Positions 1,390 through 48,970 of a DNA stretch of 48,970 nt are shown here, one piece after another. The translations under genes and the position numbers were made by a program. The stretch is from NCBI GenBank assembly GCA_035697485.1, contig DASSCU010000003.1, positions 1 through 48,970 of the forward strand, written 5' to 3'. This DNA is from Actinomycetota bacterium (GTDB lineage Bacteria; Actinomycetota; UBA4738; HRBIN12). Positions within the stretch are counted from its first letter, which is position 1. Each line of letters opens with the position of its first letter. The notes under the pieces were generated by a model that worked only from the letters and a program-made list of their open reading frames with translations, was not told the DNA's origin and ran no database searches.

Positions 1390-2178
1390 ATGAGCGATGC
1401 GTGGATCCGCGCCCTCGTGGCGCTGCCGTTCGGGCTGGCGATCGGGAGCTTCATGACGGTCGTCGTGTCCCGCGTGCCGGCGGGGGAGAGCGTGCTGCGG
1501 CCCCGGTCACGGTGTCCGAGCTGCGGCACCGAGATCCGCAATCGCGACAACGTGCCGGTGGTGTCGTGGGTGCTGTTGCGGGGGCGATGCCGATCGTGCG
1601 GTGAGCGCATCTCCGGGCGGTACCCCCTGCTCGAGCTCTCCACCACGGTGCTCGTCGTCGCAGCCGCAGCGGCCTACGAGCGGATCTGGATCGCGGTCAT
1701 GGTGGCGCTGTTCCTGTCGCTGATGCCGGCCCTGGCCTGGATCGACATCGAGCATCGCATCATCCCCAACCGCATCACGTACCCGGCGTTCCTGGGGTTC
1801 AGCGCGTACGTGGTGGTCGCGTGGCTCTTCGACGGCGGGACCGATCCGATTCGGGCGCTCGGCGGTGCCCTGCTCTACGGCGGCCTGTTGTTCGTCGTCG
1901 CGCTCGTGTCGCGAGGCATGGGCATGGGCGACGTGAAGCTGGCCCTGGTGATCGGGGTCGTGCTGGGGTCGATCGGCCTCGGCTTCGTCGGGGTGGCGGC
2001 CGCAGGTGCTGTGCTCTTCGGCGGGATCGGGGGGATCGTGGCTCTGATCGTGGGCCGAAATCGCAAGGCGATGATCCCGTTCGGACCGTACATGGCCGCG
2101 GGCGCGGTGGTCGGGGCGTTCTGGGGTGAGCCGATCGCCGACTGGTACCTGCGGTCGTTCAGCGCCACGCTCCTCTGA
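1390..2178 (+). CDS. Prepilin leader peptidase / N-methyltransferase (A24 family)
   Basis: A membrane aspartyl protease that cleaves type IV prepilin leader peptides and may methylate the new N-terminus. The 262 residues are typical length. The N-terminal cytoplasmic domain carries the two zinc-ligand pairs C42/C45 and C67/C70. The two catalytic aspartates are D119 (in WIDIEHR) and D181 (in GMGMGD, the GxGD signature). Several hydrophobic segments cover residues 8-28 and 86-255. It lies between the TadG-like gene and the pilMNO cluster, so it probably serves one or both of these pilus systems. It could be called pilD or tadV-like; keeping the methyltransferase domain favours the PilD type. 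Confidence 0.93.
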   Translation: MSDAWIRALVALPFGLAIGSFMTVVVSRVPAGESVLRPRSRCPSCGTEIRNRDNVPVVSWVLLRGRCRSCGERISGRYPLLELSTTVLVVAAAAAYERIWIAVMVALFLSLMPALAWIDIEHRIIPNRITYPAFLGFSAYVVVAWLFDGGTDPIRALGGALLYGGLLFVVALVSRGMGMGDVKLALVIGVVLGSIGLGFVGVAAAGAVLFGGIGGIVALIVGRNRKAMIPFGPYMAAGAVVGAFWGEPIADWYLRSFSATLL

Positions 2179-2194
2179 GCAGGTCGTTCGGCCC

Positions 2195-2210
2195 TCGAAC
2201 ATACGTTCAA
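2195..2210 (+). promoter_or_regulatory. LexA/SOS-box-like operator
   Basis: The sequence TCGAACATACGTTCAA contains CGAAC-N4-GTTC, matching the Gram-positive and actinobacterial LexA consensus CGAACRNRYGTTYG at all positions but the last. It lies about 130 bp before the BldC-like gene and its downstream pilMNO genes. LexA binding is inferred from the motif alone. Confidence 0.5.
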
Positions 2211-2233
2211 ACATCGTTCCTGCAGATGTTTGA
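2207..2233 (+). repeat. 9-bp perfect inverted repeat
   Basis: TCAAACATC (2207-2215) and GATGTTTGA (2225-2233) form a perfect inverted repeat with a 9-nt spacer. It begins inside the end of the LexA-like box. It could be a protein operator, or the stem of a terminator for the prepilin peptidase transcript, but no T-run follows. Confidence 0.55.
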
Positions 2234-2289
2234 CTTGCCCTGTGGCCTGCTGTTTCGTGAGCAGCCTCAACAGCACTTCTGTCGTTTCA

Positions 2290-2323
2290 TGTGACTCGTG
2301 TGAACTGGTGTGAACTGATGTGA
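2290..2323 (+). repeat. Four TGTGA direct repeats at helical-turn spacing
   Basis: TGTGA begins at 2290, 2299, 2309 and 2319 (steps of 9, 10 and 10 bp). The middle copies form the tandem 10-mer GTGTGAACTG. The array ends just before the strong Shine-Dalgarno GGAGGAGG (2325-2332) of the BldC-like gene. Same-face, head-to-tail repeats are the known DNA target geometry of BldC-type proteins, so this is a plausible autoregulatory site (inference). Confidence 0.6.
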
Positions 2324-2336
2324 CGGAGGAGGCGGT

Positions 2337-2543
2337 ATGGCCGATGTGCAGCCGTTCGTGACCGGAGCGTTGCTCACGGTTGCGGAGGTCGCCGCCGGCA
2401 TGCGCGTGTCGAACATGACGGTCTACCGGTTGATCAAGAGCGGCGAGCTGCCCGCCGTCCGCGTCGGCAAGGGCTACCGCATCCGCGGATCGGAGCTGCA
2501 GCGCTTCCTCGAGGAGCGTTCCGTGCAGGTAGAGGGGGGCTAG
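2337..2543 (+). CDS. BldC-like / excisionase-family winged-helix DNA-binding protein
   Basis: This 68-residue protein is a single MerR-like winged helix-turn-helix of the HTH_17 class. LLTVAEVAAGMRVSNMTVYR (residues 12-31) forms the helix-turn-helix, and VRVGKGYRIRGSELQRFLEE follows as wing and second helix. It has no effector or dimerisation domain. Length and fold match Streptomyces BldC, which binds direct repeats as a head-to-tail oligomer, but sequence identity looks modest, so orthology is not claimed. Start ATG 2337 has GGAGGAGG at 2325-2332. Its stop (TAG 2541-2543) overlaps the pilM GTG by one base, which ties its expression to the pilus genes. Four TGTGA repeats lie directly upstream. 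Confidence 0.88.
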   Translation: MADVQPFVTGALLTVAEVAAGMRVSNMTVYRLIKSGELPAVRVGKGYRIRGSELQRFLEERSVQVEGG

Positions 2544-3643
2544 TGGCCAGGGGGCGCATCGGCCTCGACATCGGCTCGACCGCGGTCAGAGCCGTCGAGC
2601 TCGCGGGGGGCGATCCGCCCACCGTGGTCAAGGCCGCCCAGGTGCCGCTGCCCGCCGGTGCCGTGGAGAACGGCGAGGTCAGGGAACCCGAGGTGGTCAC
2701 CGATGCGCTGCGCGAGCTCTGGGAGCGCGGCGGCTTCAAAGCCAAGCGCGTGTACATGGGCGTGGGCAACCAGCGGGTCGTGGTGCGCGAGATCGCCCTG
2801 CCCTACCTGCCCGAGAAGGAGCTCCGGGCTTCGCTCGGCTTCCAGGTCCAGGAGTTCATCCCGATGCCCGTCGACGAGGCCGTGCTGGACTACGACCCGA
2901 TCGGGGAATTCGAACAGGACGACCGCAAGATGCTGCGCATGCTGCTGGTCGCGGCGCAGCGGCAGATGGTCGACACGGTGGTGTCCGCCGTGACCGGCGC
3001 CAAGCTCGAGCCGGTCGGCCTCGACCTCGTTCCTTTCGCGATGGTGCGCTCGGTCGGCACGACCGGCGTCGGCATGGATCTCGAGGACGAGGGCGACGAG
3101 GCCGTGATCGACATCGGCGCCCACGTGACCAACATCGTGGTGCACGCGCGCGGCACGGTGCGGTTCGTGCGCATCCTCCCGTCGGGCGGGCGCGACGTGA
3201 CCCTCGCGATCGCCCGCGGCATCGGTGTCGAGGACGACGTGGCCGAACGCCTGAAGAGGGGTGAGGAGGTCGAACTCGAGACGCCCCCGAGGGTCGACCA
3301 GGAGGACGGCGAGGAGGTGGCCGAGGCGCCCGATACCGGTCGGGTCAGGGAGATCGCGATGCAGCGGGCGGCGAGCTTCGTCGACGAGATCCGGTCGTCG
3401 CTCGAGTTCTACACGGCGCAGGCGCAAGGCGCTCGCATCGCGCGCGTGCTCGTCACGGGCGGCGGCTCGAAGCTGGAGGGGCTCCTCGAGCTCCTGCGCC
3501 AGCGTATCCCGGTCGAGGTCGAGGCGGGCCAGGTGTTCCAGCACGCACGCTCGCAGCTCTCGCTGTCGGCTGAGGCACTCGAAGAGGCGGAGCCGGTGCT
3601 CGCCGTGGCCGTCGGGCTCGCGATCCCCGGGAGGATCCCGTGA
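2543..3643 (+). CDS. pilM: Type IV pilus assembly ATPase-fold protein PilM
   Basis: A cytoplasmic actin-fold (FtsA-like) protein that binds the N-terminus of PilN and helps form the inner-membrane platform of type IV pili. The 366 residues start with GRIGLDIGSTAVRAVEL, the phosphate-1 motif of the family, and carry EAVIDIGAHVTNIVVHARG (about 190-209) and VLVTGGGSKLEGL (about 307-319) as the later nucleotide-binding motifs. GTG start 2543 overlaps the upstream TAG. Followed by pilN and pilO with overlaps, the standard pilMNO order. An acidic, low-complexity stretch at about 240-270 separates subdomains. Confidence 0.95.
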   Translation: MARGRIGLDIGSTAVRAVELAGGDPPTVVKAAQVPLPAGAVENGEVREPEVVTDALRELWERGGFKAKRVYMGVGNQRVVVREIALPYLPEKELRASLGFQVQEFIPMPVDEAVLDYDPIGEFEQDDRKMLRMLLVAAQRQMVDTVVSAVTGAKLEPVGLDLVPFAMVRSVGTTGVGMDLEDEGDEAVIDIGAHVTNIVVHARGTVRFVRILPSGGRDVTLAIARGIGVEDDVAERLKRGEEVELETPPRVDQEDGEEVAEAPDTGRVREIAMQRAASFVDEIRSSLEFYTAQAQGARIARVLVTGGGSKLEGLLELLRQRIPVEVEAGQVFQHARSQLSLSAEALEEAEPVLAVAVGLAIPGRIP

Positions 3644-4263
3644 GCCAGGTCAACCTCCTTCCCCCCGATATCCTGCAGGCGCAGCGATATCGGCGCCTCA
3701 CCTCAGGCGTGGTCGTCGCGGGCATCGTCCTGGTCGCGGCGGTCTTCGCTTACTACCTCTGGCAGAGCAACGAGCTGAGCAGCGTGAACGATGAGATCGT
3801 CGCGCAGGAGGCCACGAACGCCTCGATCCAGGCGAGCATCGCCGAGAAGCAGAAGTACGCCGACCTGCAGGCCGAGGCGCAGGCGCAGCAGCAGCTCTTG
3901 GCCGCGGCCTACGCGGGGGAGGTCTCGTTCTCGGCCCTGTTGATGGACTTCTCTCGCGTGATCCCGTCCGACGCCTACGTCAACAGCCTCGCGGTCCAGG
4001 CCGACCAGGCGGCGGTGGCTGCCGAGGGAGCGACCCCCGGCCTGATCGGCGGGATCACCGGCAGCGGCCAGGCGGTCAGCATCGACACGCTCTCGGTCTT
4101 CCTGACCCGGCTCGAGCAGGTGAAGGGGTGGGTCAACCCCTGGATGTCGACGGTGAGCAAGAACGAGGAGGTCAACGGCTACGACTACTCGGTGAGCGTG
4201 GATCTCACCGACGAGGTCGTGACCGAGCGAGGGAAGGAAGGGGCCGTCGATGCTGCGGGGTAG
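3640..4263 (+). CDS. pilN: Type IV pilus assembly protein PilN
   Basis: Bitopic membrane protein of the pilus alignment subcomplex. The N-terminal SQVNLLPPDI motif is the segment of PilN proteins that binds PilM. One membrane helix spans about residues 22-41, followed by a coiled coil rich in Gln, Ala and Glu (about 45-90) and a small ferredoxin-like periplasm-equivalent domain. The 207 residues are normal length. GTG 3640 overlaps the pilM stop as GTGA, and the 3' end overlaps pilO by 14 nt, so the three genes are probably translationally coupled. Confidence 0.92.
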   Translation: MSQVNLLPPDILQAQRYRRLTSGVVVAGIVLVAAVFAYYLWQSNELSSVNDEIVAQEATNASIQASIAEKQKYADLQAEAQAQQQLLAAAYAGEVSFSALLMDFSRVIPSDAYVNSLAVQADQAAVAAEGATPGLIGGITGSGQAVSIDTLSVFLTRLEQVKGWVNPWMSTVSKNEEVNGYDYSVSVDLTDEVVTERGKEGAVDAAG

Positions 4264-5610: not shown

Positions 5611-6765
5611 ATGCTCCGCATGCTCACGGCCGGCGAGTCGCACGGGAAGGCGCTCGTCGCCGTGCTCGAAGGCATGCCCGCGGGCGTGCCGGTCGATCCC
5701 GACGCCCTCGCGCACCAGCTCGCGCGGCGGCGCCACGGCCACGGTCGTGGGGGGCGACAGCGGTTCGAGTCGGACCGGTTCGAGATCCTCGCCGGGGTCC
5801 GTCACGGCCGCACGCTCGGCTCGCCGATCGCGGTGACGATCCCGAACCTGGAGTTCGAGGCGAAATACCGCGATCTCATGGGTGTGACCGGCGAGGAAGA
5901 TCCCGCGGCGCGCCTCACCCGGCCACGGCCCGGGCACGCCGATCTCGCGGGCTCGCAGAAGTACGGGTTCGACGACGTGCGCAACGTGCTCGAGCGGGCG
6001 AGTGCGCGGGAGACGGCGGCCCGCATGACGGCGGGGACGTTCTGCCGGTGGTTCCTCGCCGAGCTCGGGATCGAGATCGTGTCGCACGTCGTGCGGATCG
6101 GATCGGTCAAGGTGCCCGCGCGGACCCCGCTGCCGACGCCCGCCGACGCGGCGACGATCGACCGCTCACCGGTGCGTTGCTTCCACGATGCCTCGTCGAA
6201 GGCCATGGTGGCCGAGATCGACCGACTCCGGAAAGGCCGCGAGACGGTCGGCGGCGTCTTCGAGGTGCTCGCCCACGGCGCTCCGCCGGGGCTCGGGTCC
6301 CACGTGCACTACGACCGCAAGCTCGACGGCCGACTCGCGCTCGCCCTGATGAGCATCCAATCCGTGAAGGGGGTGGAGGTCGGCGACGGGTTCGCGACCG
6401 CTGCTCGACCGGGTTCCAAGGCGCACGATGAGATCGTGGTCCGGGGAGGCCGCGTCACGCGCGCGACCGGCCGGGCGGGTGGCATCGAAGGCGGCATGAG
6501 CACCGGCGAGACGATCAGGGTGCGGGCGGCCATGAAGCCGTTCTCGACCGTGCCGACGCCGCTCGCGACGGTCGACATCGCCTCCGGTGAACCGGCGGTC
6601 GCGATCAAGCAGCGTACCGACGTCTGCGCCGTGCCCGCGGGCGGGGTCGTCGGCGAGGGGGTCGTCGCGTTCGAGCTCGCGAACGCCGTGCTGGAGAAGT
6701 TCGGGGGGGATTCGCTCCCGGAGACCCGTGGGAACCTCGAACGCTACCGGGAGGGATCGGCGTGA
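5611..6765 (+). CDS. aroC: Chorismate synthase
   Basis: Converts 5-enolpyruvylshikimate-3-phosphate to chorismate using reduced FMN, the last step of the shikimate pathway. The 384 residues cover the full family length. It opens MLRMLTAGESHGKALVAVLE, and the conserved GESHG, the Arg-rich RRRHGHGRGGRQ loop and the PGHADLAGSQKYGFDDVRNV block with its ERASAR motif are all present. The start is the ATG 12 nt after TATGAT. It overlaps aroK by 4 nt and heads an aroC-aroK-aroB-aroQ operon. Confidence 0.97.
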   Translation: MLRMLTAGESHGKALVAVLEGMPAGVPVDPDALAHQLARRRHGHGRGGRQRFESDRFEILAGVRHGRTLGSPIAVTIPNLEFEAKYRDLMGVTGEEDPAARLTRPRPGHADLAGSQKYGFDDVRNVLERASARETAARMTAGTFCRWFLAELGIEIVSHVVRIGSVKVPARTPLPTPADAATIDRSPVRCFHDASSKAMVAEIDRLRKGRETVGGVFEVLAHGAPPGLGSHVHYDRKLDGRLALALMSIQSVKGVEVGDGFATAARPGSKAHDEIVVRGGRVTRATGRAGGIEGGMSTGETIRVRAAMKPFSTVPTPLATVDIASGEPAVAIKQRTDVCAVPAGGVVGEGVVAFELANAVLEKFGGDSLPETRGNLERYREGSA

Positions 6766-7259
6766 TCGTCTACCTGGTGGGCATGCCGGGCGCCGGCAAG
6801 ACGGTCGTCGGGCGGGAGCTGGCGGACCGTCTCGGGGTGCCGTTCGTCGACCTCGACACCGAGATCGAGCTGGAGCAGCGACGCCCGATCACAGAGATCT
6901 TCGTGTCGGAGGGGGAGCCGGCGTTCCGGGCGATGGAGGCTGCCGCGCTCGTCAAGGCGGGCGCGCACGACCCCTCGGTGGTGTCCTGCGGGGGCGGGGT
7001 GGTGCTCGAGCCCGCGAACCGGATCACGTTGCGGAACACGGGAACCGTGGTCTACCTCGACGTGCCGCTCGACGAGCTCCGGGCCCGTGTCAGGCCCGCG
7101 GAGGATCGGCCGTTGATCCACGAGGAAGGTGACCTCGAGCGACTGCTCGCCGAGCGAGGCCAGTTGTACCGGGAGTTCGCCGCCCACGTGGTGGACGGGA
7201 GCGGCGCGCCCGGAGATGTGGCGGACGCGATCGTCGAGGAGCTGCGTTGGTCCGTGTGA
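6762..7259 (+). CDS. aroK: Shikimate kinase
   Basis: Phosphorylates shikimate at the 3-hydroxyl using ATP. The 165-residue P-loop protein has GMPGAGKT as Walker A (about 6-13), the DLDTEIE motif that binds Mg2+ and shikimate, FRAMEAAAL (family FRxxE), the glycine triad SCGGGVVL, and the lid Arg in RPLI. GTG start 6762 overlaps the aroC stop (GTGA), and the 3' end overlaps aroB by 13 nt. Length and motifs are normal. Confidence 0.96.
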   Translation: MIVYLVGMPGAGKTVVGRELADRLGVPFVDLDTEIELEQRRPITEIFVSEGEPAFRAMEAAALVKAGAHDPSVVSCGGGVVLEPANRITLRNTGTVVYLDVPLDELRARVRPAEDRPLIHEEGDLERLLAERGQLYREFAAHVVDGSGAPGDVADAIVEELRWSV

Positions 7260-8335
7260 CCGTGCCCATCCCCGAGCGCGCGTATGACGTCGTGATCGGC
7301 CGCGGGCTTCTCGTCGACGCAGCCCGCCATCTCCCGGAGTTCCCGAGGGCCACGCGGGCGTTCGTGATCGCGGACCGCGCGGTCGTCGATCGGGCGTTCG
7401 GCTCCCTCGCCGGTGGACTCGCACGGGCAGGCCTCGACGCCGTGCTGCTGACGGTTCCGTCGGGGGAGGAGGCGAAGACCCTGCAGGTCTCGGGCACGCT
7501 CCTGCATCAGTTGGCGACCCAGGAGGCCCACCGCGACGACGTCGTGGTGGCGCTCGGGGGTGGATCGACCGGGGACCTGGCTGGATTCGTGGCCTCCACC
7601 TACATGCGGGGGGTGCCGTTCGTGCAGGTGCCGACGACCCTGCTCGCGCAGGTCGACGCGGCGGTCGGGGGCAAGACCGCGGTCAACCTGCCCGAGGGCA
7701 AGAACCTCGTGGGCACGTTCTTCCAGCCCCGTGGCGTGTTGGCCGACGTCGAGACGCTGGCCACCCTGGACGAGCGAGACTTCCGGTCGGGGCTCGCCGA
7801 GGTGGCGAAGTACGCGCTCGCACTCGATCCAGCGCTGCTCGAGGGCCTGGAATCCGATCCGGGCCCGGTCCTCGCTCGGGATCCCGAGGCGCTCGAGTCG
7901 TTGGTGGCGCGGTGCGTGGCCGCGAAGGCGCGCACGGTCGCCAGCGACGAGCTCGACATGGGGTCGCGCCTCTTCCTGAACTACGGGCACACCCTCGGAC
8001 ACGCGCTCGAGCGGCTCGAGGCGTTCTCCGGGCGCACCCACGGCGAGGCGATCGCGGTCGGCATGGTCTTCGCGGCCCGCCTTGCAGAACGGCGCGGCCT
8101 GGCGTCGCCTGGGCTCGTCGGACGGACCACGCGGCTGCTGTCCTCGCTCGGACTCGAGGTGGACGGACCCCTCCCCCCGGTCGACGACATCACGACGGCG
8201 TTCCGCATGGACAAGAAGTTCCACGGAGGAGTCCGGTTCGTGCTGCTGCGTGCGGTCGGCGATCCGGTGGTCGTCGAGGACGTCGCCGACGACGAGCTGC
8301 GGACGACGATGCTGGAGATGGGAGCGACGGCATGA
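7247..8335 (+). CDS. aroB: 3-dehydroquinate synthase
   Basis: Cyclises DAHP to 3-dehydroquinate with NAD+ and a divalent metal; second step of the shikimate pathway. The 362 residues include the nucleotide-binding GGGSTGDLAGFVASTYMRG, VPTTLLAQVDAAVGGKTAVN, and the metal ligands in NYGHTLGHALE and TRTHGEAI-like FSGRTHGEA. Start TTG at 7247 overlaps aroK; a GTG at 7256 is an alternative that would shorten it by three residues. Typical length. Confidence 0.96.
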   Translation: MVRVTVPIPERAYDVVIGRGLLVDAARHLPEFPRATRAFVIADRAVVDRAFGSLAGGLARAGLDAVLLTVPSGEEAKTLQVSGTLLHQLATQEAHRDDVVVALGGGSTGDLAGFVASTYMRGVPFVQVPTTLLAQVDAAVGGKTAVNLPEGKNLVGTFFQPRGVLADVETLATLDERDFRSGLAEVAKYALALDPALLEGLESDPGPVLARDPEALESLVARCVAAKARTVASDELDMGSRLFLNYGHTLGHALERLEAFSGRTHGEAIAVGMVFAARLAERRGLASPGLVGRTTRLLSSLGLEVDGPLPPVDDITTAFRMDKKFHGGVRFVLLRAVGDPVVVEDVADDELRTTMLEMGATA

Positions 8336-31226: not shown

Positions 31227-31358
31227 AGCTCGTTTCCGGGGCGGGGTGCGACTCCCCACCGGCGGTGAGAGTCCGCGACCCCACGGCCGCCAGCCGTGGG
31301 TGGATCCGGTGCGATTCCGGAACCGACCGTGACAGTCGGGATGGGAGGAGACGGGCAC
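31227..31358 (+). promoter_or_regulatory. FMN riboswitch (RFN element)
   Basis: The leader shows the conserved RFN blocks in order: CGGGGCGGGGTG, CTCCCCACCGGCGGT, GAGTCCGCGA, GGATCCGGTG, ATTCCGGAACCGAC and AGTCGGGATGGGAG. FMN binding turns down the rib genes. Downstream, CTCC at 31420-31423 can pair with GGAG at 31428-31431 in the ribD Shine-Dalgarno, so the switch probably controls translation; the pairing change is inferred. Confidence 0.95.
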
Positions 31359-36308: not shown

Positions 36309-36671
36309 ATGGCGCGAGTGAAGCGATCGGTCCACGCGAAGAAGAAGCGCCGTGCGGTGCTCGAGCAGGCCAAGGGGTATACGGGAACCCGACGGAAGCG
36401 GTACCGCGCCGCCAAAGAGCAGGTCATGCACTCGGGCATGTACGCCTACCGAGACCGCCGTGACCGCAAGGCGCAGTTCCGCAGGTTGTGGATCGCGCGA
36501 ATCAACGCGGCGGTCCGCCCCCACGGCATGTCGTACTCGCGGTTCATCAACGGCTTGAAGCTGGCTGGCGTCGAACTCGACCGCAAGATCCTCGCCGACT
36601 TGGCCGTCAGCGACCCCACGGCGTTCGCCGCGCTCGTCGAGCAGGCGAAGGCCGCCTCCGCCGCGGCCTGA
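36309..36671 (+). CDS. rplT: 50S ribosomal protein L20
   Basis: 120-residue rRNA-binding protein needed early in 50S assembly and, in several bacteria, for autoregulation of its operon. [40 protein letters not shown] and [17 protein letters not shown] are typical. ATG 36309. Confidence 0.97.
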
Positions 36672-36696: not shown

Positions 36697-38151
36697 GTGC
36701 TGACGTCCGCCAAGAATCCCAAGGTCGCCAACGCCGCGCGCCTGCGCAAGCGGGCCTTCCGCGAGGACGCGCGGCGGTTCCTGTTGGAGGGCGCCCAAGC
36801 GGTCGGCGAGGCCCTCGAGGCCGAGCGGCTCGAGACCCTGTTCACCACCGATGAGCTCGATCCTCTCGCCGTGCGGGCTCGGCACGCCGGGATCGAGACG
36901 TACCACGTCGCCGACGAGGTGGTCCGCCGCCTGACATCCACCGTGACCCCGCAGGGGATCGTCGGAGTCGCCGGCTTCCTCGACGTCGGGCTCGGGTCGG
37001 TCCTCGAGGCCGCCTTCAACGAAGGCGAGGGGTGCATCGCACTGCTGCACCAGGTCCGTGATCCCGGGAACGCCGGCACCGTGCTCCGCTCCGTCGACGC
37101 TGCGGGCGCCGGCGGGATCGTCTTCTCCGAGACCTCGGTCGACGTCTACAACCCCAAGACCGTCCGCGCCTCGGCGGGATCCGTGTTCCACGTGCCGGTC
37201 GTGCGCGACGCCTCCACGATCGACGCGATCGAGCGGGCGAAGGGCGCGGGAGCCCGCGTGCTCGCGATGGCTGCCGAGGGGTCGAGCGACCTCTACCGCA
37301 CCGACCTGTCGGGCCCTGTGGTCCTCGTGTTCGGCAACGAAGCGCAGGGGCTGCCCGACGACGTCGCGACCGCCGCCGACGCCGTGGTCCGCGTCCCCCA
37401 ATCGGGCCGAGCGGAATCGCTGAACCTCGCGGCGGCGGCGACGGTGTGCCTGTTCGAGTGGCAGCGGCGTCGTCTGCGGTCCGGCGAGGCCCTCGAGAGC
37501 ATCGTGACCGCGGCCGCCCACGACATCCGGTCGCCCCTCACCGCCATGAAGGGCTTCGGGTACGCCCTTGAGCGTCGGTGGGACGCGATGACGGAGGAGC
37601 AGCGGGCGATGATGCTGCAGGGCATCGTGCACGATGCGGACCGCATGGACACGATCCTGCGCATGCTCGTCGACGCCGCCCGTGTGGTCGGCGGCACGCT
37701 CGAGGTCTTCCGGGAGCAGGTCGACGTCGGGGACCTCGTCAGGCGCGTGGCCGAGGCCCAGCGACGGGATCCCGACCATCCGGGGGTGGAGTGGGTCGGC
37801 CAGGTGCAGACGGTCTTCGCCGATCCCGCCCGGCTCAAGACGACCCTCCAGGCGTTCTGCGGTTCGCTCGTATGGTGGGGGAGCGAGGGGCCGATCGTCG
37901 TCGACGCCGAGATGCGGGGCGCCACGCTGGTGCTCCGTGCCTCGAGACCGGTCGAGGATCTCACCGACGACGAGGCCGACGGGCTGTTCCAGCCTCGACG
38001 GCCGGGAGAGGGGGCCGGCAGCAAGATCGGCCTGTTCGTCGCGCGGGGCGTGGCCGAGGCCCAGGGTGGGCGCTGCTGGGGCTCGGTCGAGAACGGCCGT
38101 CTCGTGTTCCACCTCGAGCTCCCGGCCGGACCGGACACGCCGTCGGGCTGA
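36697..38151 (+). CDS. TrmH/SpoU RNA 2'-O-methyltransferase fused to a histidine-kinase-like module
   Basis: One uninterrupted 484-codon frame joins two families. Residues 1-260: substrate-binding domain (1-95) then a SPOUT methyltransferase with motif 1 DPGNAGTVLR (122-131), motif 2 FGNEAQGL (212-219) and motif 3 ESLNLAAAATVCLFEW (240-255). Residues 264-476: a DHp-like helix pair with an H-box, AHDIRSPLTAMKGF, phospho-acceptor candidate H275, and a HATPase-like fold with G2-like GAGSKIGLFVARGVAEAQGG (439-458). The N-box asparagines and the DxGxG G1 motif are not seen, so ATP binding may be lost. The split is near base 37480. A stand-alone SpoU gene between rplT and pheS is usual; the kinase part is not. 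GGAGGGG precedes GTG 36697. Confidence 0.9.
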   Translation: MLTSAKNPKVANAARLRKRAFREDARRFLLEGAQAVGEALEAERLETLFTTDELDPLAVRARHAGIETYHVADEVVRRLTSTVTPQGIVGVAGFLDVGLGSVLEAAFNEGEGCIALLHQVRDPGNAGTVLRSVDAAGAGGIVFSETSVDVYNPKTVRASAGSVFHVPVVRDASTIDAIERAKGAGARVLAMAAEGSSDLYRTDLSGPVVLVFGNEAQGLPDDVATAADAVVRVPQSGRAESLNLAAAATVCLFEWQRRRLRSGEALESIVTAAAHDIRSPLTAMKGFGYALERRWDAMTEEQRAMMLQGIVHDADRMDTILRMLVDAARVVGGTLEVFREQVDVGDLVRRVAEAQRRDPDHPGVEWVGQVQTVFADPARLKTTLQAFCGSLVWWGSEGPIVVDAEMRGATLVLRASRPVEDLTDDEADGLFQPRRPGEGAGSKIGLFVARGVAEAQGGRCWGSVENGRLVFHLELPAGPDTPSG

Positions 38152-38199: not shown

Positions 38200-39255
38200 A
38201 TGGACCCCGAGGAGATGCTCCGTTCGCTCGAGGTCGAGCGCGATCGTGGCCTCGGCCTGATCGAAGCGGCGGCCACGCCGGAGCAGCTCGAGGCCGCCCA
38301 GGTCGAGGCGATGGGCCGCCGGTCCCCGTTCAGCGCGATCCAGAGGTCGCTGGGGGCCCTGCCCCCCGAGGACCGCAAGCGCGTGGGCCGAGCCGCGAAC
38401 GAGGTGCGGACCGCGCTGCAGGCCGCGCTCGGTGCCCGAGGAGAGGCCCTCGAGCGGCTGGCCGAAGACGCCCTGCTCGATGCCGACCGGCTCGACATGT
38501 CGTTGCCCGGACGGGCGCCGCGCGTGGGGTCGTTCCACCCTCTGACGATCGTCGAGCGCGAAGCGGTCGAGGTGTTCACGAGCCTCGGCTTCCGGGTCGC
38601 GGAAGGGCCCGAGGTGGAGGACGACTGGCACAACTTCCAGGCGCTGAACATCCCGCCCGACCATCCCGCCCGCACGATGAAGGACTCCCTGTACGTCGAC
38701 GTGCCGGGCAGGCCGGAGCTCTTGCTACGCACGGAGACGTCGGCGGTGCAGATCCGCACGATGCAGTCGCAACCGCCGCCCGTGTTCGTCGTGGCGCCGG
38801 GTCGGGTCTACCGGCGCGAGACCCCTGACCCGACGCACCTGCCCGTCTTCCAACAGATCGAGGGGTTGGCGGTCGACGAGGGCATCACTTTCGCCGACCT
38901 GAAAGGCACCCTCGACGTGTTCGTGAAGGCCATGTTCGGCGAACGCCGGCGCATCAGGCTCGGACCCGCGTTCTTCCCGTTCGTGGAACCGGGATGCGAG
39001 GTCGGCGTGTCGTGTTTCCGCTGCGATGGAGCCGGCTGTCGTGTCTGCGGCACCGGGTGGATCGAGCTGCTCGGCGCCGGCATGGTGCACCCGGTGGTCC
39101 TCGAGAACTGCGGCTACGACCCGGAGCGCTATACGGGATTCGCGTTCGGCCTCGGCATCGAGCGCGTGGCCCTGCTGCGCTACGAGATCCCAGACATCCG
39201 CATGCTCGTCGACGGCGACGTGCGTCTGCTGGAGCAGTTCCAGGGGGTCGTATGA
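38200..39255 (+). CDS. pheS: Phenylalanyl-tRNA synthetase alpha subunit, variant Phe pocket
   Basis: Catalytic class II subunit of the PheST tetramer. The 351 residues have the N-terminal coiled coil (about 1-95), motif 2 (VAPGRVYRRE) and motif 3 (GFAFGLGIERVALLRY). A four-Cys zinc knuckle CFRCDGAGCRVC (272-283) lies before the GAGMVHP strand. The usual RTHTS reads RTETS (E179 for the Phe-binding His), and FHQxEG reads FQQIEG. The rest is normal length. ATG 38200. Overlaps pheT by 4 nt. Confidence 0.95.
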   Translation: MDPEEMLRSLEVERDRGLGLIEAAATPEQLEAAQVEAMGRRSPFSAIQRSLGALPPEDRKRVGRAANEVRTALQAALGARGEALERLAEDALLDADRLDMSLPGRAPRVGSFHPLTIVEREAVEVFTSLGFRVAEGPEVEDDWHNFQALNIPPDHPARTMKDSLYVDVPGRPELLLRTETSAVQIRTMQSQPPPVFVVAPGRVYRRETPDPTHLPVFQQIEGLAVDEGITFADLKGTLDVFVKAMFGERRRIRLGPAFFPFVEPGCEVGVSCFRCDGAGCRVCGTGWIELLGAGMVHPVVLENCGYDPERYTGFAFGLGIERVALLRYEIPDIRMLVDGDVRLLEQFQGVV

Positions 39256-48836: not shown

Positions 48837-48970
48837 TCTACGGAGAGTTTGATCCTGGCTCAGGACGAACGCTGGCGGCGTGCTTAACACATGCAAGTCG
48901 AACGGTGAACCGGGCTTCGGCCCGGGGATCAGTGGCGAACGGGTGCGTAACACGTGGGCAACCTGCCCCA
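48837..48970 (+). rRNA. rrs: 16S ribosomal RNA, 5' part only
   Basis: The sequence GAGAGTTTGATCCTGGCTCA at 48844-48863 is the universal 16S start, followed by GACGAACGCTGGCGGCGTGC and GTGCGTAACACGTGGGCAA. The gene runs out of the window after ~134 nt. The pattern is actinobacterial. The exact mature 5' end is approximate. Confidence 0.97.

What the first reader, a model, noticed from the sequence alone, without database searches (positions are those of the whole stretch)
36697..38151. RNA methyltransferase fused to a histidine-kinase-like module
One open frame holds a full SPOUT 2'-O-methyltransferase (motifs at residues 122-131, 212-219, 240-255) followed directly by a DHp helix with an H-box (AHDIRSPL, H275) and a HATPase-like C-terminus. 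I know of stand-alone SpoU genes between rplT and pheS, but not of this fusion. It would tie rRNA or tRNA modification to phospho-signalling or to a kinase-derived dimerisation scaffold. The N-box and G1 residues are missing, so the module may bind without catalysis. The neighbouring ribosomal and PheRS genes suggest a translation-linked role.
Basis: partly seen in the sequence, partly recalled or inferred. Interest (0 to 1): 0.85.

Follow-up and report, generated by a model that had tools for sequence, protein, structure and literature searches.

The report
rRNA methyltransferase fused to dead kinase
In one class of Actinomycetota, an rRNA-methylating enzyme is fused to the neighbouring sensor kinase, which has lost its ATP site but kept its phosphate-accepting histidine, so ribosome modification may be tied to bacterial signalling in an apparently undescribed way.

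Summary
One uninterrupted 484-residue frame encodes an intact SpoU/SPOUT 2'-O-methyltransferase (RlmP/RlmR/MRM3 type) followed by a DHp-plus-HATPase module. It is not an assembly error: 24 of 27 genomes held for the window's class (one order, four families) carry the same junction. One more shows only the kinase half at a contig edge, one has lost that half, and one gave no locus. No fusion was found elsewhere in a 396-genome phylum survey. There, the methyltransferase and a complete histidine kinase are often separate neighbours between rplT and pheS. This is the locus type of Streptomyces OhkA (SCO1596), next to pheS (SCO1595). The fusion therefore joined an existing gene pair. After fusion every tested ATP ligand was lost and replaced by fixed new residues: D417 to R, G443 to K/R and K/R393 to W, each in 23/23, and both N-box Asn gone. 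H275 and its H-box stayed conserved. The module is under purifying selection (dN/dS about 0.09-0.2). Best reading: an OhkA-derived pseudokinase that works like ChpT/Spo0B, or as a phospho-independent regulatory dimer, on an A-loop-type rRNA methyltransferase. Fusion, origin and dead ATP site are shown; the phosphate role is inferred.

The parts
36697..38151 (+). Fused gene: SpoU/SPOUT 2'-O-methyltransferase + DHp/HATPase-like pseudokinase, 484 aa, GTG start after GGCGGAGGGG
   Evidence: single open frame; same architecture in 24 class genomes
36715..36966 (+). L30e-like substrate-binding domain (MRM3-like), residues 7-90
   Evidence: PF22435 E 3.6e-15
37039..37455 (+). SpoU/SPOUT catalytic domain, residues 115-253; motifs N125..R131, GNE213-215, ESLN240-243 intact
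   Evidence: PF00588 E 1.6e-36; invariant columns; fold match to RlmR 9h1k, S. meliloti 5kzk, RlmP/YsgA 7qiu
37456..37497 (+). Junction/linker, variable in length and sequence (F253 to H275 = 21-27 residues across relatives)
37498..37686 (+). DHp (HisKA) helices, residues 268-330
   Evidence: PF00512 E 1.6e-8, 23 of 23 relatives match
37519..37521 (+). H275, the conserved phospho-acceptor histidine of the H-box HDIRSPLTA
   Evidence: invariant in 23 fused and 21 separate partner kinases
37717..38130 (+). HATPase-like (CA) domain with a dead ATP site, residues 341-478
   Evidence: profile similarity to HK853/ZraS; N-box, G1 and G2 residues lost
37873..37875 (+). W393 in place of the N-box Lys/Arg
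   Evidence: W in 23/23 fused; K or R in 20/21 separate
37945..37947 (+). R417 in place of the G1 (DxGxG) Asp
   Evidence: R in 23/23 fused; D in 20/20 separate with letters
38023..38025 (+). K443 in place of the second Gly of G2 (GTGLGL to GSKIGL)
   Evidence: K in 21 and R in 2 of 23 fused; G in 20/20 separate
36309..36671 (+). rplT (L20), directly upstream; infC and rpmI precede it
   Evidence: ORF list and sequence; found upstream in every fused locus whose contig reaches it
38200..39255 (+). pheS, directly downstream; pheT follows
   Evidence: ORF list; synteny

Best explanation
The gene is a class-wide fusion of two genes that are neighbours elsewhere in the Actinomycetota: an A-loop-type 23S rRNA 2'-O-methyltransferase (RlmP/RlmR/MRM3 kind) and the orphan histidine kinase of the rplT-methyltransferase-kinase-pheS locus (OhkA/SCO1596 type). 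SHOWN: the fusion, the single clade of the fused halves, their spread through the class, the intact SPOUT motifs, the conserved H275/H-box, the loss of all tested ATP-binding residues, and purifying selection on both halves. INFERRED: the methyltransferase dimer methylates the A-loop region of 23S rRNA, and its C-terminal DHp hairpins pair into a four-helix bundle on the same dimer. The module cannot phosphorylate itself with ATP. Instead it works like ChpT or Spo0B: H275 takes phosphate from, or gives it to, a receiver domain or another kinase. The remodelled HATPase-like domain (W393, R417, K443) serves as a docking or anionic-ligand surface. The phosphorylation or partner-bound state then tunes the methyltransferase or reports its dimer state. 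Estimated probabilities: pseudokinase fusion of OhkA origin 0.9; phosphate actually carried on H275 about 0.45.
For: 24 of 27 class genomes carry the junction, 45-76% identity over about 480 aa. Outside the class no full-length match was listed in a 396-genome phylum survey, but 20 of 38 fetched regions (14 families) have rplT, methyltransferase, kinase and pheS as separate consecutive ORFs (regions chosen partly for kinase hits). Partner kinases are complete (HATPase_c 1e-21 to 1e-31, often with PAS). Fused modules form one clade (100/100); their nearest relatives on the tree are the PAS-less partner kinases of family f5, though only weakly placed (79/98). Fixed changes on fusion: E276D, N386A/S/V, N390A/S/G/T, K/R393W, D417R, G443K/R, with H275 kept 23/23. 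dN/dS of the kinase half 0.09-0.20, the methyltransferase half 0.12-0.23. OhkA=SCO1596 (PMC9739842) and pheS=SCO1595 (PMC10771440) are consecutive tags. ChpT precedent: HK-like dimer with an atypical Bergerat fold, no ATP binding, His33 shuttles phosphate (PMC3433190). HD after the acceptor also occurs in HATPase-intact kinases of the same genome.
Against: No partner receiver or kinase identified. One class genome (G021) has a clean loss of the kinase half with the methyltransferase kept, so the module is dispensable in at least one lineage. Linker length varies by single residues (21-27), so no fixed helical register couples the halves. The HATPase-like domain is not more basic overall than in partner kinases (-4.9 against -4.7), so there is no general sign of RNA binding. 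The kinase half of the structure model has low confidence (pLDDT mostly 38-87), so the geometry of W393/R417/K443 is unproven. rRNA target not tested.
Confidence: 0.5

Rival explanations
1. Phospho-independent scaffold: the DHp hairpin and remodelled HATPase fold only add a dimerisation or ribosome/partner-docking surface to the methyltransferase; H275 is structural.
For: All ATP ligands lost while new residues W393, R417 and K/R443 are fixed; purifying selection; variable linker, no register coupling; many non-catalytic kinase folds are scaffolds (general knowledge).
Against: H275 and its neighbours D276, R278 and P280 are invariant in 23/23, and the whole H-box is among the best-conserved stretches of the half, more than a helix-packing role needs.
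Confidence: 0.35
2. Still an active histidine kinase with an unusual ATP site, signalling to a response regulator as OhkA does to OrrA.
For: HisKA intact; HATPase fold recognisable in 17/23; OhkA ancestry.
Against: Both N-box Asn, the N-box Lys, the G1 Asp and the G2 Gly are replaced in all relatives, with the Asp reversed to Arg.
Confidence: 0.05
3. Decaying remnant: a read-through fusion whose kinase half is being lost, with no function.
For: HATPase half diverges faster (mean identity 47% against 60%); G021 has lost it; G018 and G022 are long branches.
Against: dN/dS 0.09-0.20 in the half; invariant H275, W393, R417 and G441 across four families; open frame in 24 genomes.
Confidence: 0.07
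4. Assembly or sequencing artefact joining two genes.
For: None beyond the genomes looking like draft assemblies.
Against: Same in-frame junction in 24 separate assemblies with varied linkers.
Confidence: 0.01

Closest known systems
RlmP (B. subtilis YsgA, Gm2553), RlmR (T. thermophilus, Um2552), MRM3 (mitochondria, Gm2553)
   Same: L30e-like substrate-binding domain plus SPOUT domain; best solved relatives 5kzk, 7qiu, 9h1k (PMC12123411). My recollection is that ysgA also lies beside pheS.
   Different: None of these carries a histidine-kinase-like C-terminus; the target here is untested.
OhkA (SCO1596), orphan histidine kinase of Streptomyces
   Same: Kinase of the locus between the methyltransferase and pheS; homologous DHp/CA domains; the likely source of the fused half.
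   Different: OhkA-type partners are separate proteins with an intact ATP site and usually a PAS domain; the fused half has neither.
ChpT and Spo0B (dimeric histidine phosphotransferases with a kinase-like fold)
   Same: DHp-like dimer with an acceptor His and a non-ATP-binding CA-like domain (PMC3433190); one fused member hits PF10090 weakly (E 0.0019).
   Different: Fused to an RNA methyltransferase; phosphotransfer untested; independent origin from an OhkA-type kinase.
DivL and RetS (repurposed sensor kinases)
   Same: Kinase-fold regulators with altered catalytic roles; both appear among the profile matches.
   Different: They act inside two-component networks, are not fused to an enzyme of RNA modification, and need not share the same lost residues.

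Membership tests
SpoU/SPOUT 2'-O-methyltransferase, RlmP/RlmR/MRM3 group | L30e-like N-terminal substrate-binding domain plus SPOUT knot domain | tested here: met
   PF22435 3.6e-15, PF00588 1.6e-36; 23/23 relatives; fold match
SpoU/SPOUT 2'-O-methyltransferase, RlmP/RlmR/MRM3 group | Catalytic motifs NxG..R, GNE..G, ESLN | tested here: met
   invariant in alignment A3
SpoU/SPOUT 2'-O-methyltransferase, RlmP/RlmR/MRM3 group | Methylation of G2553 or U2552 in the 23S A-loop | not testable with these tools
   needs mass spectrometry or RiboMethSeq
Histidine kinase (HisKA + HATPase_c) | H-box with phospho-acceptor His | tested here: met
   H275 in 23/23; HisKA above cut-off
Histidine kinase (HisKA + HATPase_c) | N-box Asn, G1 DxGxG, G2 GxGxG for Mg-ATP | tested here: not met
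   0/23 keep the Asn residues, D417 is R in 23/23, G443 is K/R in 23/23; HATPase_c below cut-off in the window protein
OhkA-type orphan kinase of the rplT-methyltransferase-kinase-pheS locus | Position between the methyltransferase and pheS | tested here: met
   consecutive tags SCO1596 and SCO1595
OhkA-type orphan kinase of the rplT-methyltransferase-kinase-pheS locus | Common descent with partner kinases | tested here: inconclusive
   fused clade 100/100, placed next to f5 partners at 79/98; partners score far better than the genome's other kinases
OhkA-type orphan kinase of the rplT-methyltransferase-kinase-pheS locus | PAS sensor domain | tested here: not met
   no room between residues 260 and 268; also absent in f5 partners
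ChpT/Spo0B-type histidine phosphotransferase | Kinase-like dimer with acceptor His and non-ATP-binding CA-like domain | tested here: inconclusive
   acceptor His and lost ATP ligands met by sequence; dimer and lack of ATP binding not measured, model confidence too low for geometry
ChpT/Spo0B-type histidine phosphotransferase | Phosphotransfer to or from a receiver domain | not testable with these tools
   needs biochemistry; no partner receiver found or sought in depth

The most novel reading that the evidence does not exclude
An rRNA-modifying enzyme is covalently wired into a phosphorelay: H275 of an OhkA-derived pseudokinase carries phosphate and the remodelled ATP pocket reads a ligand or partner, so that 23S A-loop methylation (or late large-subunit assembly) is controlled by, or reports to, two-component signalling.
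Probability: 0.3. Interest if true: 0.82.

Novelty: new variant of a known kind. Interest (0 to 1): 0.6.

Why it matters
Ribosomal RNA modification and two-component signalling are normally studied apart. Here evolution joined an rRNA methyltransferase to its neighbouring kinase, removed the ATP chemistry, fixed new residues in the former ATP pocket and kept the acceptor histidine across a whole class. That gives a clean natural experiment on how a kinase becomes a regulatory module. It also suggests that the long-standing pairing of this methyltransferase gene with an OhkA-type orphan kinase in Actinomycetota (including the kinase that controls Streptomyces development and antibiotics) may be functional rather than accidental. 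That link can be tested directly in Streptomyces.

Tried and rejected
Artefact: rejected (24 genomes). Active kinase: rejected on residues. Decay: rejected by dN/dS and invariant residues, with the caveat of the G021 loss. Coiled-coil register coupling from methyltransferase to DHp: disfavoured by linker lengths varying by one residue. RNA-binding by a basic CA domain: no excess charge. Viral-contig scans for relatives found none. The genome-contig scan returned mostly stand-alone methyltransferases in other taxa, with no fusions. Literature searches for a reported fusion found none in the open-access library; the OhkA primary paper is not held. No separate OhkA-like kinase remains in the window's genome: the other kinase hits are no better than E 4.5e-14.

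Full report
WHAT IS THERE. Window 36697-38151 (+) is one open frame of 484 codons with a GTG start 25 bases after rplT, preceded by GGCGGAGGGG. Pfam finds the MRM3-like substrate-binding domain (7-90), SpoU_methylase (115-253), HisKA (268-330, E 1.6e-8, above cut-off) and a sub-threshold HATPase_c (E 0.037). Sequence comparison with solved structures aligns residues 1-260 to 5kzk (S. meliloti), 7qiu (B. subtilis RlmP/YsgA) and 9h1k (T. thermophilus RlmR). It aligns the C-terminal half end to end with ZraS and HK853. A profile of the fused family raises those kinase matches to 3.9e-23 and 1.2e-19.

IT IS NOT AN ARTEFACT. The class of the window holds 27 genomes, all one order. Twenty-three give essentially the whole fused protein in one frame (one of them, G015, cut at the N-terminus by a contig end), G012 gives a fusion cut by a contig end, and G011 gives only the kinase half at a contig edge next to pheS. 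G023 (73% complete) gives nothing, and G021 keeps the methyltransferase but has pheS directly after it, with the kinase half cleanly gone. Wherever the contig allows, rplT lies upstream; pheS lies downstream in all but a few loci where the fetched stretch did not show it.

WHERE IT CAME FROM. In 396 phylum genomes no other full-length match was listed. In 20 of 38 regions fetched from outside the class (14 families; partly chosen for kinase hits) the same position holds two separate consecutive genes, methyltransferase then histidine kinase, between rplT and pheS. The eight partner kinases scanned have complete HisKA and HATPase_c domains, mostly with PAS. In family f5 the partner is a short PAS-less kinase that starts close downstream of the methyltransferase, the obvious pre-fusion state. 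A tree puts the fused halves in one clade (100/100), next to the f5 partners (79/98, weak), away from other kinases of the window's genome. The window's genome has six WhiB hits, and of the 14 control genomes the WhiB family rings only in Corynebacterium glutamicum, which supports Actinomycetota. In S. coelicolor the orphan kinase OhkA is SCO1596 (PMC9739842) and pheS is SCO1595 (PMC10771440), and the large Streptomyces-like genomes G047 and G351 show the same locus. So the fused half is most likely an OhkA-type kinase. That SCO1597 is the methyltransferase is from memory.

WHAT CHANGED. Comparing 23 fused with 21 separate modules: the acceptor His is kept in all; the following Glu became Asp in all fused; N-box Asn386 and Asn390 (21/21 in partners) are lost in all fused; the N-box Lys/Arg is Trp in all fused; the G1 Asp (20/20) is Arg in all fused; the G2 Gly (20/20) is Lys or Arg in all fused. 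By homology with HK853 (established knowledge) these positions bind Mg-ATP. The replacements are uniform, and dN/dS of this half in close pairs is 0.09-0.20, as low as in the methyltransferase half. This is a site put to another use, not a decaying one. The window's own protein also lacks the Glu389 that 21 of 23 relatives keep. HD in place of HE is not itself inactivating evidence: other kinases of this genome with intact N-box and G1 motifs also have HD.

HOW IT MAY WORK. The SPOUT part is intact and should methylate large-subunit rRNA, most likely the A-loop region, as its closest characterised relatives do (PMC12123411); this is inference. The DHp part should dimerise. The junction varies by single residues (F253 to H275 = 21-27), so a rigid coiled-coil register between halves is unlikely. 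Because the ATP site is dead, H275 can only be phosphorylated by another kinase or a receiver. The close parallel is ChpT, a kinase-like dimer that binds no ATP and passes phosphate through its His (PMC3433190). The strict conservation of H275 and its surroundings is the main argument for a phosphate role; absence of any known partner and the G021 loss are the main arguments against. A phospho-independent scaffold is nearly as likely.

STRUCTURE.

NOVELTY. I found no description of this fusion (only open-access papers searched). Both parts are known families, so it is a new variant: a new domain architecture with a new, fixed kind of pseudokinase site.

Noticed in passing
window 31228-31356 (+): FMN riboswitch (Rfam RF00050, 98 bits) upstream of the riboflavin gene cluster.
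   Followed up: no
window 48837-48970 (+): The window ends inside the start of a 16S rRNA gene (first 133 positions).
   Followed up: no
L065 (G021:C8) 6265-8264: Class member that lost the kinase half: the methyltransferase frame stops just after the SPOUT domain and pheS follows at once.
   Followed up: partly
L074 3-1199 and L091 1-810 (family f18): In these genomes a complete histidine kinase lies upstream of rplT instead of after the methyltransferase; on the tree it groups with other kinases, not the locus type.
   Followed up: partly
L095 (G240, family f28) 1494-3818: About 2.3 kb of other sequence separates the methyltransferase from pheS where other families have the kinase; gene content not examined.
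   Followed up: no
L022 (G010) near 2865-2930: The last 30 or so residues of the fused protein are out of frame relative to relatives, probably an assembly frameshift.
   Followed up: partly
window 37861-37863: Residue 389 is Gly in the window protein, while 21 of 23 relatives have Glu there.
   Followed up: no
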